In this document: in pieces, positions 34,683-42,725 of the stretch
Position numbering within the stretch: position 1 is the first letter of the stretch
Layout of the letters: each line of letters begins with the position of its first letter
Assembly (NCBI GenBank): GCA_905182215.1
Contig: CAJJAI010000033.1
Location: forward strand, 1-58,400
Direction of reading: 5' to 3'
Source of the DNA: Flavobacteriales bacterium UBA6772
Lineage (GTDB): Bacteria > Bacteroidota > Bacteroidia > Flavobacteriales > UBA7430
Length of the DNA: 58,400 bases
Translations under genes and position numbers: made by a program
The notes under the pieces: model-generated
Seen by the model: only the letters and a program-made list of their open reading frames with translations
The model's database searches: none
What the model was told of the DNA's origin: nothing

Positions 34683-36581
34683 TTAGTATGCTCTGTTTGG
34701 ATTACCTTCTACATAATACATAAAGGCTTTGTTTACTACTTTGTTCCCACCGGGAGTAGGATAATCACCTGTAAAATACCAATCTCCTTTATGGTTAGGA
34801 CAGGCTTGGTGAAGTTCGTCTATACCTTGGAAGATAATTTCTACCTCCGCCTTTATATCTTCTGGTTTGAGGAGTTCCACACATTTAGCAGAAATTTCTT
34901 CTGGTGTAAATGGATTGTAAATACCTTTCACGTAATTTACAACCTCTTCTTTAGGCAAGCCTATTTGAGCTTTACATTTTTGGTAGATTTCCTCAATTAA
35001 AGATTCCATCCCTCTATCTTTCAACAATGCGATAGCTGCTCTAAAGGCAATAAAATCGCCCATTCTAGCCATGTCTATTCCATAACAATCTGGGTAGCGA
35101 ATTTGAGGCGCAGAAGAAACCACAACAATTTTCTTTGGATTTAAGCGATCTAATATTTTAAGAATACTTTTCTTTAAAGTAGTTCCTCTTACAATACTGT
35201 CGTCAATCATCACCAAATTATCGGTATTGCTTACCTGTCCGTAAGTAATATCGTATACGTGTCCTACTAAGCTATCGCGGTTAGAATCATCTGTAATAAA
35301 GGTTCTAAGTTTAGCGTCTTTAATTGCAATTTTTTCAATTCTTGGACTTACAGAAAAGATCTCTGTAATTTGTTTTGCCGTAGCATCAGAGCCAAGATCA
35401 AGTACTTGTTGTGCTTGTTTTTCTTTATACAAATCTTCCATTCCTTTTACCATTCCGTAAAAAGAAGTTTCGGCTGTATTAGGAATAAAGGAAAATACAG
35501 AGTTCTTTAAATCTCCTCCAATACTCTCCATTATTTTAGGGCAAATTAACTTCCCTAATTCTTTACGCTCTGTATAAATATCGGCATCGTTTCCTCTAGA
35601 GAAGTAGATACGTTCAAAAGAACAAGCTTTATTTTCTAAAGGCTCTGTTATTTGATCCATGCTTACACGACCATCTTTTTTGATGATTAATGCGTGGCCA
35701 GGAGTAATTTCAGAAATGGAGTCTTGAGGAACATTCATGGCTGTTTGTATTACAGCTCTTTCTGAAGCAACCACTACAATCTCGTCGTCTTTATAATAAA
35801 AACCTGGACGAATTCCTGCTGGATCTCTCAATGCAAATGCATCTCCATGCCCCATTAAACCGCACATTACATAACCTCCATCCCACTTTTTAGCAGAATT
35901 GGCAAGTACATTTTGTACATTTATTTTCGAAGCGATGAATTTTGACATCTCTCGCTTACTGGTAACTTCATCTTTATACTTGTAATAAATTTCGTCGTTT
36001 TCCTCATCAAGGAAGTGCCCAATTTTTTCGAGTATTGTAACCGTATCCGATTTCTCTTTTGGGTGCTGACCTAAATCTATAAGTTGATCGAATAACTCAT
36101 CTACATTGGTCATGTTAAAGTTACCTGCCAATACTAAATTACGAGTCATCCAGTTGTTCTGACGTAAAAATGGGTGACAATGTTCTACACTATTCCCCCC
36201 ATAAGTACCATAGCGAAGATGCCCTAAAAACAATTCTCCAGAAAACGAAACATTTTCCTTTAACCACTGTACATCCTTAAGTTTCCCAGGATTCTTTTCT
36301 TCTACATCTTCAAATTTCTTGTTGATGTAAGTAAAAATATCTTGTACAGAATTAGTTTTATTAGATCGGTAACGAGAAATATACCTTTTACCAGGCGCTA
36401 CATCGAGTTTAATGTTTGCCAAACCGGCACCATCCTGACCACGATTAACCTGCTTTTGCATTAACAAGTACATCTTATTTAAACCATAAAGAGAAGTGCC
36501 ATACTTTTCTTGGTAATACTCCAAGGGCTTTAGAAGGCGAATCATCGCTACTCCACACTCGTGTTTTAACTCGTCACTCAT
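34683..36581 (-). CDS. purF: Amidophosphoribosyltransferase, long Bacteroidota form
   Basis: 632 aa: HECGVAMIRLLKPLEYY; FSGELFLGHLRYGTYGGNS; VMIDDSIVRGTTLKKSI PRPP motif. Confidence 0.9.
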   Translation of the reverse strand: MSDELKHECGVAMIRLLKPLEYYQEKYGTSLYGLNKMYLLMQKQVNRGQDGAGLANIKLDVAPGKRYISRYRSNKTNSVQDIFTYINKKFEDVEEKNPGKLKDVQWLKENVSFSGELFLGHLRYGTYGGNSVEHCHPFLRQNNWMTRNLVLAGNFNMTNVDELFDQLIDLGQHPKEKSDTVTILEKIGHFLDEENDEIYYKYKDEVTSKREMSKFIASKINVQNVLANSAKKWDGGYVMCGLMGHGDAFALRDPAGIRPGFYYKDDEIVVVASERAVIQTAMNVPQDSISEITPGHALIIKKDGRVSMDQITEPLENKACSFERIYFSRGNDADIYTERKELGKLICPKIMESIGGDLKNSVFSFIPNTAETSFYGMVKGMEDLYKEKQAQQVLDLGSDATAKQITEIFSVSPRIEKIAIKDAKLRTFITDDSNRDSLVGHVYDITYGQVSNTDNLVMIDDSIVRGTTLKKSILKILDRLNPKKIVVVSSAPQIRYPDCYGIDMARMGDFIAFRAAIALLKDRGMESLIEEIYQKCKAQIGLPKEEVVNYVKGIYNPFTPEEISAKCVELLKPEDIKAEVEIIFQGIDELHQACPNHKGDWYFTGDYPTPGGNKVVNKAFMYYVEGNPNRAY

Positions 36582-36785
36582 AGGGCTTGGGCAGTAAATT
36601 TAAGCCTGCAAGTTACAATAAAGTTTAGAGATTTTAAGCCCTGTTTTTGATCCTTTTATTGGGGGAAATAGGGAATAGGTAAAAGGGGATTTAGATAGCA
36701 AAAGGCATAAAGAGATAGTTACTACATTTATCAAAAGAATAAATGTGTAACTTGTTGAGGTAAAATTGTATCCTAATATTTTATT

Positions 36786-38108
36786 ATGAAAAATATCATT
36801 CCCCTATTCACATTATTTTTAACGGTTAGTCTTAATGCTCAAAACCTAGTACCAAATCCTAGTTTTGAGGTCTATACTGGAATATTTAATGATTTCATGC
36901 ATAATGCAGATTTAGAATACGCTACACCTTGGTTCGATACCCCTGCATATCCTGGGGGGGGGGGCAACCCCAGATTATATAAACATTAACATGCCGCTAA
37001 CCTTATACAATAACGATACCTACGAATTTCAAACACCAAAATCTGGTTATGCGATGGCAAGTTTTTTTTCTTGTAATTATAACGAGGTTATTCAAACGAG
37101 TGAGCCATTTCAAATTCGACTAAAAGAGCAGATGGAAGTCGGCGAAATTTACCAAGTCAGTTTTTATATCAAAAAGGCTAACTATTACAATTCAGGAGAA
37201 TGCTATTATGGCTCAGATGAATTAGGAATTTACTTCCATACCGATACCATTTATGGTATGGCTTACGAATCGGAACATGAAGATATAAGTAAAATAGAAA
37301 ATGCCTTAAATCTTTACGTAATGGATACTACTATTTGGGGCAATCCTTATCCTGTTTTATCTCAATTTTTACAAACGCCAGATGTAGCCTTAGACACCCT
37401 TATAAACGACGAGGTAAACTGGTATTTGGTTACCGATACAGTATATGCCGATAAAGCCTACGAGTTTATGACCTTTGCAAGATTTAATATGTTCGAAGAT
37501 ATACAATGGGCTATAGAAGAAGATTGTATTTGGGGAACAGCCGTTTCTGCCATGCTCGTAGACGATGTGAGTGTAAACCTAGTAAATGAAGAACATATAG
37601 AAGCAGTGCAGGCTTAGATACTACAATATGTTTGGGAGCGTCTGTACAAATAGGCACAAGTGAACACGAAGATTATATGTATTGGTGGACACCCAACGAG
37701 GAAATGGAAACTAGTATTTACGGAAATGTAAACCCCGGTATGCCATGGGTAAACCCCACAGAAACCACCACCTACACGCTAACACAAAAAGACTTTGCAT
37801 TTGAAGAGACTATAGATGTGGTTACCATAACGGTAGAAGTATGTCCAGGATTTAGTGTAGGTGAAACTGTAGCTGAGACTATTAAAATCTTCCCGAATCC
37901 AGCAAAAAACTTTATTGAGATTGAAAGTGGCTATGCCATTGATTCATGGAAGTTATTGGATGTCTTGGGGAAAGAAGTCGCTAGTAGTAAGTATCTGGAA
38001 TCTAGTAAAAACTTAGTACTTGATGTTTCGTCTTTTGATGCAGGGCTTTATTTCTTGGAAATGGAGCTTGATGGTATTCAAGTTATAAAACAGTTAATGA
38101 TTGAGTAA
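36786..38108 (+). pseudogene. Frame-disrupted (or phase-variable) T9SS-sorted secreted protein in three ORF pieces
   Basis: Piece 1 (36786-36989) signal peptide + LVPNPSFEVYTG; piece 2 (36991-37617) continues if the G11 tract loses one G; piece 3 (to 38108) AGLDTTICLGASVQIG...FPNPAKNFIEIESG..DVLGKEV..LDVSSFDAGLYFLEMELDGIQVIKQLMIE = type A sorting domain. Confidence 0.8.
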
Positions 38109-38208: not shown

Positions 38209-39231
38209 TTAAACAAAATCCTCTTTTTTCATTCCCAGCCAATCTAAAGCTGATTTACTTAATAACTGTTCTTTCTGGGCATCCTCCCAAGGCATGCTAT
38301 TTATTAATTGTCCGGGCTGTAATTCGCCTAGCGGAAATGGGTAATCTGTTCCTAGAGCAATCTTATCGGCACCCATTACATCCACAATATATTCCAACAT
38401 TTTAGGATCGTGTACGAGGCTATCGATAAAGAATTTTCCAATATAATCTCTAGGGTGTTTTTTGTTATCTACTGCACAAAGGTCTGGGCGAACCTCAAAT
38501 CCGTGCGAAACACGACCTATGGTAGAAGGAAAAGAACCTCCACCGTGAGCAAAGGCAACGCGCAATTGGGGTAGTCTCTCGAAAACTCCACCAAAGATGA
38601 ATGAGCAAATGGCTCTAGAGCTTTCTGCAGGCATACCCACAAGCCAGGGAAGCCAATATTTATCCATGTGTTCCTTAGCCATCATATCCCAAGGATGTAC
38701 AAACACGCACATATCTAACTCTTCGCAAGCTTGGAAAATTGGAAAAAATTCGGCTTCGTTTAGATTCTTATTGTTTACGTGGGTTCCTATTTGAATCCCT
38801 TTTAAACCAATTTCTTTACAACGCTTTAACTCTTGTATAGCGAGTTCTGCATTTTGCATCGGAACAGTTCCTAAACCTGCAAATCTGTTTGGAAAACGCT
38901 TTACAATATCGGCAATATGATCGTTTAAAAACACAGCTACTTCGAGTGTGTCTTTTGGTTCTGCCCAATACGAAAACATCACTGGAACGGTAGACAATAC
39001 TTGTACGTGAACACCTTGCTCATCGGACTCTTCCATGCGTTTTTCTGCCGACCAACAATTATCGTCTACCTCGCGGAAAAACTTATCGTCCATCACCATT
39101 TTTGCACAACATGGTTTGTGATGATCAAGACTAATGAATCCTCCATAGCCAAACTTTTCCTTAAAATTAGGAATGTCCTTTGGAAGGATATGCGTGTGAA
39201 TATCTATGGTAAATAAATTCTTTTGTGGCAT
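38209..39231 (-). CDS. Amidohydrolase, 2-amino-3-carboxymuconate-6-semialdehyde decarboxylase (ACMSD)-like
   Basis: IDIHTHILPKDIPNF; HPWDMM; AFAHGGGSFPSTIGR; ALGTDYPFPLGE; adjacent to 3-HAO. Confidence 0.87.
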   Translation of the reverse strand: MPQKNLFTIDIHTHILPKDIPNFKEKFGYGGFISLDHHKPCCAKMVMDDKFFREVDDNCWSAEKRMEESDEQGVHVQVLSTVPVMFSYWAEPKDTLEVAVFLNDHIADIVKRFPNRFAGLGTVPMQNAELAIQELKRCKEIGLKGIQIGTHVNNKNLNEAEFFPIFQACEELDMCVFVHPWDMMAKEHMDKYWLPWLVGMPAESSRAICSFIFGGVFERLPQLRVAFAHGGGSFPSTIGRVSHGFEVRPDLCAVDNKKHPRDYIGKFFIDSLVHDPKMLEYIVDVMGADKIALGTDYPFPLGELQPGQLINSMPWEDAQKEQLLSKSALDWLGMKKEDFV

Positions 39232-42223: not shown

Positions 42224-42702
42224 ATGAGAAATTCCATACTATTGACCTGTTGAACGGCGCTATTTTCATTAAACACTTTTGCTCAAACAACAGAACATCC
42301 CGACAATCACGAGCATCATGTTTACGAAATAGGCATTGCAAATGCACCTGTTTATTTTTTAAAAGAAAATGTAGTTGCTTTCGGCTTACATGTGCACTTA
42401 ATTAAAAAAATAGCCCACACTAAGTTTGGAATTGGTGTAGGTTATGAAAAGATTTATGATGAGCATAAACACAATACAATAGGCCTTCTGGTAAGTTAAA
42501 CCCAGTAGAACAACTGAGTTTAAACGCATCACCAGGAATTACTTTTGATGGAGGAGAGTCTGAAATCAACTTTGCGATGCATTTAGAAACTTCTTACGAA
42601 TTTGAATTCGATAATTTTCACTTGGGTCCAGTGTTAGAATTTGCTTACGATCCGGAGGATATACACATAAGTTTAGGACTTCATTTGGGTATTGGATTCT
42701 AA
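42224..42702 (+). pseudogene. Degraded outer-membrane-type protein
   Basis: MRNSILLTC*TALFSLNTFAQTTEHPDNHEHHVYEIGIANAPVYFLKENVVAFGLHVHLIKKIAHTKFGIGVGYEKIYDEHKHNTIG then frameshift to PSGKLNPVEQLSLNASPGITFDGGESEINFAMHLETSYEFEFDNFHLGPVLEFAYDPEDIHISLGLHLGIGF*. Confidence 0.85.
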
Positions 42703-42725
42703 ATAATCCTTATTCTTAAAAACAT

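What the first reader, a model, noticed from the sequence alone, without database searches (positions are those of the whole stretch)
36786..38108. T9SS-type secreted-protein gene interrupted at a G11 homopolymer: possible phase-variable surface protein
The gene has a signal peptide, a GEVYQVSFYIKKA-like body and a C-terminal T9SS sorting domain. It is out of frame at a run of 11 Gs (36954-36964) in this AT-rich genome. Deleting one G restores ...WFDTPAYPGGGATPDYININMPLTLYNNDTYEFQTPKSGYAM... into the next ORF. Long poly-G in a surface-protein ORF is the classic arrangement for slipped-strand phase variation. Sequencing or assembly error at a homopolymer is the main alternative.
Basis: partly seen in the sequence, partly recalled or inferred. 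Interest (0 to 1): 0.6.

Follow-up and report, generated by a model that had tools for sequence, protein, structure and literature searches.

The report
Doubly broken secreted-protein gene, poly-G tract
A gene for a secreted, sugar-binding-type surface protein in a Flavobacteriales genome is broken in two places, once at an unusual run of 11 Gs and once further on, so it looks like a decaying accessory gene rather than one that the run of Gs can switch on and off.

Summary
The G11 run (36954-36964) is the only G/C run of 8 or more in the whole 1.26-Mb assembly, and the reading frame is lost there. The frame that continues after the G run stops at 37615-37617, before the type IX secretion sorting domain, which lies in another frame; the second break is within 37590-37614, away from any homopolymer. 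As assembled, no G-run length gives one protein with both signal peptide and sorting domain, so slippage here cannot alone be an ON/OFF switch. The segments either side of the G run form one jelly-roll, carbohydrate-binding-module-like domain common in Bacteroidota; the run codes for a loop. None of 80 homologues has a G/C run above 7. The gene is absent from the same site in a congener. Another accessory gene nearby (42224-42703) is also broken, by a nonsense codon and a frameshift, while about 30 kb of conserved genes in the window are unbroken. Best reading: a lineage-specific T9SS cargo gene decaying by indels, one at a slippage-prone G tract. Phase variation would need the second break to be an artefact; only reads can settle that.

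The parts
36786..36953 (+). 5' part of the gene: signal peptide and start of the jelly-roll domain (MKNIIPLFTLFLTVSLNAQNLVPNPSFE...), frame 0
   Evidence: ORF list; codon log-odds favour this frame, 0.12 against -0.60 and -0.54; QNLVPNPSFE shared with about 95 homologues
36954..36964 (+). G11 tract and first frame break; codes for the loop between the conserved W and the (T/S)PDYFN motif
   Evidence: unique in the assembly; alignment position
36964..37614 (+). Middle segment in the second frame: rest of the jelly-roll (CBM-like) domain; ends at TAG 37615-37617
   Evidence: 217 codons without a stop (chance about 2e-7) and best codon score in this frame; homology across the tract; one AlphaFold2 domain spans the tract (pTM 0.80)
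37590..37614 (+). Interval that holds the second frame break (back to the first frame); no homopolymer
   Evidence: TGA in frame 0 at 37587-37589 and TAG in the middle frame at 37615-37617 bound it; codon preference changes frame here
37614..38105 (+). 3' part: linker (DTTICLGASVQIG...) and T9SS type A sorting domain, frame 0
   Evidence: PF18962 46.6 bits and TIGR04183 33.8 bits, both over cut-off; PF18962 at 37887-38102
42224..42703 (+). Second broken accessory gene in the same contig: in-frame TGA in the signal peptide and a frameshift near 42495
   Evidence: matches at 39% (full-length, open frame) and 61% (partial) identity in a same-order genome; absent between the same neighbours in G001

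Best explanation
This is a lineage-specific accessory gene for a T9SS cargo protein: signal peptide, a jelly-roll domain resembling carbohydrate-binding modules, a linker, and a type A sorting domain. It is broken by two separate small indels and is probably a young pseudogene. The first break is most likely polymerase slippage in a G tract that grew within a Gly-rich loop; the second is an ordinary indel about 640 bp downstream. Shown: both breaks in the assembly, the domain homology, the absence of the gene from the site in a congener, and a second broken accessory gene nearby. Inferred: that the breaks are present in living cells and are not reversible, and that the intact protein bound glycans at the cell surface.
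For: Two breaks, the second not at a repeat. The segments are coding: best codon score in the stated frames; the segments either side of the tract align with homologues over one domain and fold as one domain with CBM4, CBM16, CBM22, CBM61 and gingipain adhesin domains among the PDB matches. Accessory: purF and the amidohydrolase gene are neighbours with 143 bp between them and no gene in congener G001, and lie next to each other in G009; no homologue in the other 11 family genomes. Decay of accessory genes: 42224-42703 carries a nonsense codon and a frameshift. About 29.7 kb of conserved coding sequence shared with G001 shows no break. If indel errors fell evenly, all three single-base breaks falling in about 1.8 kb of accessory genes would have a chance of about 2e-4 (my arithmetic). 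Short T9SS genes elsewhere in the genome whose 5' end is visible are intact.
Against: All three segments have kept good codon usage and no nonsense codons, which also fits an intact gene with two assembly errors. No reads, no second strain and no transcript data were available. The assembly is a 62%-complete MAG.
Confidence: 0.6

Rival explanations
1. Phase-variable surface protein: the G tract changes length by slippage and switches the gene; the second break is an assembly or sequencing error.
For: G11 is within the range that is mutable in Campylobacter (8 or more; PMC6321876). It sits early in a secreted-protein gene, is unique and far beyond chance. The downstream frames are well kept.
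Against: As assembled, no tract length gives a signal peptide and sorting domain in one protein. The tract is not conserved in homologues. There is only one such tract in the genome. MutS with an intact frame is present (885 aa), which should dampen slippage. In the family, coding tracts are mostly in frame and also occur in housekeeping genes.
Confidence: 0.15
2. Assembly or consensus artefact at both sites: the gene is intact in the cell.
For: MAG contig; homopolymers are error-prone; codon usage and frames are otherwise undecayed.
Against: No break in about 29.7 kb of conserved genes of the same contig. The second break is not at a homopolymer. A neighbouring accessory gene has a nonsense codon, which indel errors do not make.
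Confidence: 0.2
3. Programmed recoding (ribosomal or transcriptional slippage) lets one message be read through both shifts.
For: The two shifts are in opposite directions, so the sorting domain returns to the starting frame. Transcriptional slippage on G runs is possible in principle.
Against: No slippery heptamer is visible at 37590-37614. Homologues do not share a shift site: 79 of 80 have no stop inside the domain.
Confidence: 0.03

Closest known systems
T9SS type A cargo proteins (PF18962 / TIGR04183)
   Same: Signal peptide at one end and a sorting domain above cut-off at the other
   Different: Not one open frame; two frame breaks between the signal peptide and the sorting domain
Bacteroidota secreted proteins beginning QNLVPNPSFE with a jelly-roll domain (no Pfam model matched the window's protein)
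   Same: Same domain, 21-38% identity, same invariant residues
   Different: The G-coded loop is specific to this sequence; the homologues are open through the domain (79 of 80)
Carbohydrate-binding modules CBM4, CBM16, CBM22, CBM61 and gingipain cleaved-adhesin domains
   Same: Jelly-roll fold by Foldseek, E from about 1e-4
   Different: 9-14% identity and TM-scores of about 0.26-0.40 over the query; sugar binding not shown
Poly-G phase-variable genes of Campylobacter and Helicobacter
   Same: Long G tract inside a surface-protein reading frame, frame lost
   Different: Single tract in the genome, no tract-length variation seen, not conserved, and a second break makes the switch ineffective

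Membership tests
T9SS type A cargo protein | C-terminal sorting domain over the curated cut-off | tested here: met
   PF18962 46.6 bits against 27; TIGR04183 33.8 against 23
T9SS type A cargo protein | N-terminal signal peptide in the same reading frame and protein as the sorting domain | tested here: not met
   Two frame breaks between them
Slipped-strand phase-variable gene | Long homopolymer inside the reading frame or promoter, beyond chance | tested here: met
   G11, 0.27 matches expected in shuffles, unique in assembly
Slipped-strand phase-variable gene | One tract length yields a complete functional reading frame | tested here: not met
   All three length classes end before the sorting domain: stops at 36987-36989 and 37615-37617, and after about six codons in the third frame
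Slipped-strand phase-variable gene | Tract length varies between cells, strains or homologues | tested here: inconclusive
   No tract in 80 homologues; no strain genomes or reads available
Pseudogene | Two or more inactivating changes relative to intact homologues | tested here: met
   Two frame breaks against open homologues
Pseudogene | Changes confirmed in raw reads or independent isolates | not testable with these tools
   No reads held

The most novel reading that the evidence does not exclude
A slippage-switched T9SS adhesin in an uncultured Flavobacteriales lineage, with the second break an artefact: poly-G phase variation of a type IX cargo protein. My short paper searches found no report of one.
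Probability: 0.13. Interest if true: 0.5.

Novelty: new member of a known kind. Interest (0 to 1): 0.17.

Why it matters
If it is a decaying cargo gene it is ordinary: it catches a secreted surface-protein gene of a small-genome Flavobacteriales lineage in the course of being lost. It is a warning that a poly-G tract plus a restored next ORF is not enough to call phase variation; the whole gene must be open at some tract length. If reads showed the second break to be false and the tract to vary, it would be a candidate for G-tract phase variation in a T9SS surface protein.

Tried and rejected
Second-strain evidence: the held genomes are one per species, the first scan of genome contigs with the middle segment found no close relative, and metagenome contigs could not be scanned. 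Viral contigs: no relative. Family names for the jelly-roll domain: no Pfam or NCBIfam model matched the window's protein; weak hits to CBM_4_9 and BT_4411 appear only in homologues; no PDB chain by sequence. Mobile element: no flanking repeats that would suggest an insertion sequence. Mismatch-repair loss as a cause of slippage: rejected, MutS is present with an intact frame. Translational coupling of separate genes: rejected, because the third ORF has no signal peptide of its own and the jelly-roll domain spans the first break. Papers: searches for poly-G phase variation in Bacteroidetes or with T9SS gave nothing directly relevant; [quoted passage not shown]

Full report
What is there. The window is the whole of contig 33 of a 1.26-Mb, 62-contig, 62%-complete assembly. 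The order is probably Flavobacteriales: a same-order genome's homologue (L028) matches, over the printed stretch, a record titled Flavobacteriales (L183). The gene runs on the + strand from 36786 to 38108, between two conserved genes on the minus strand: an amidophosphoribosyltransferase-type gene (purF, 34683-36581) and an amidohydrolase gene (38209-39231) (gene names are my reading of the sequences). The G11 run at 36954-36964 is exact. Shuffles of the window expect 0.27 matches to G8 and none of 100 reached the 4 seen. No other G or C run of 8 or more exists in the assembly. The next longest G run in the window is 6.

The gene is broken twice. From the start codon the frame runs MKNIIPLFTLFLTVSLNAQNLVPNPSFE... 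to the G run and then ends at TAA 36987-36989. The frame one base over carries ATPDYININMPLTLYNN... to TAG 37615-37617. The sorting domain at 37887-38102 is not in that frame; it is in the starting frame, open from 37590. So a second break must lie within 37590-37614. Codon log-odds support each segment in its own frame, and the preferred frame changes around that interval. There is no homopolymer and no obvious slippery heptamer there. The consequence is simple: for each of the three classes of G-run length, translation from 36786 ends before the sorting domain. A tract-length switch alone therefore cannot make the complete protein from this assembled sequence.

What the protein was. Joined across the G run, the first 266 residues match secreted proteins in 14 other genomes of the order at 28-38% identity, and the domain profile finds 271 related stretches in Bacteroidota-dominated genome contigs. 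Alignment puts the G-coded residues in a loop of variable length between a conserved tryptophan and the motif (T/S)PDYFN. AlphaFold2 with 51 sequences gives one domain with pTM 0.80 and mean pLDDT 78 (two loop residues before the tract differ from the natural reading because the tool needs a coded shift). Foldseek matches include jelly-roll carbohydrate-binding modules and gingipain adhesin domains, at low identity. Pfam has no model that hits the window's domain. Sugar binding is an inference from fold.

Is the tract a conserved switch? In 80 homologues the longest G or C run within the domain is 7, and 46 of them have a longest run of 4. In the other 11 family genomes, G/C runs of 8-11 do occur. 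Of 20 stretches examined, most coding cases are in frame and include, by my reading of the sequences, atpA (G10), rplB (G9) and a peptidase gene. One congener, G002, has a C10 run at a frame change in a different surface-type gene, whose later part also holds stop codons. Long G/C tracts thus break expendable genes now and then in this group, but there is no sign of a set of switchable genes like that of Campylobacter, where 5-81 genes per strain qualify (PMC6321876). MutS is present with an intact frame.

Where the gene came from. In congener G001 the genes from the peptidase through purF, the amidohydrolase, a dioxygenase-type gene and aspS to the large T9SS gene are in the same order at 68-92% identity, but nothing lies between purF and the amidohydrolase (143 bp). 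In G009 the two are a few bases apart. None of the other 11 family genomes has a homologue. The gene is therefore accessory, most simply a gain in this lineage.

Error or decay? Comparing G001 ORFs with the window gives single unbroken matches over about 29.7 kb of conserved coding sequence (sum by me). The three single-base breaks of the contig that I found, two here and one near 42495, are all in accessory genes totalling about 1.8 kb. Evenly spread errors would do that with a chance of about 2e-4 (my arithmetic). The gene at 42224-42703 also carries an in-frame stop in its signal peptide, has relatives in another genus of the order, one of them full-length in an open frame, and is missing at that place in G001, where only about 113 bp separate aspS from the large gene. 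Decay of accessory genes explains all this. I cannot exclude that poorly covered accessory stretches were assembled with errors, since no reads are available.

Verdict. A broken, lineage-specific T9SS cargo gene with one break at a G11 slippage site; ordinary unless reads show otherwise.

Noticed in passing
window 42224-42703 (+): A second broken accessory gene (outer-membrane-type protein, HEHH near the N-terminus) with a nonsense TGA in the signal peptide and a frameshift near 42495; absent at the same place in congener G001.
   Followed up: yes
L108:1372-1379, L117:1473-1481 (minus), L120:1486-1494, L122:1541-1549, L123:1474-1482, and L125-L154: In this family, poly-C runs of 6-9 often sit 0-5 bases before the ATG of secreted proteins, many with a shared NTG(A/S)NMT N-terminal domain, in a context like TTAACTAAA-C(6-9)-nn(n)-ATG. 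Row counts are far above the poly-G version of the pattern (60 rows against 12, overlapping rows included) and above the reversed control (13). Could be a translation-initiation or slippage control element; worth its own study.
   Followed up: partly
L105:1518-1528 (G002 contig 105): A run of 11 G on the coding strand upstream of a gcvT-like start, followed by a TACTTTTG that resembles the Bacteroidota -7 element: a possible spacer-length-sensitive promoter.
   Followed up: no
L106:1541-1550 (G002 contig 11): A C10 run at a frame change in a lipoprotein-like gene of the same genus; the downstream part also has stop codons, so it looks like a pseudogene.
   Followed up: partly
window 36725-36748: Short palindrome (ACATTTAT...ATAAATGT) in the upstream region of the broken gene, of unknown meaning.
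   Followed up: no
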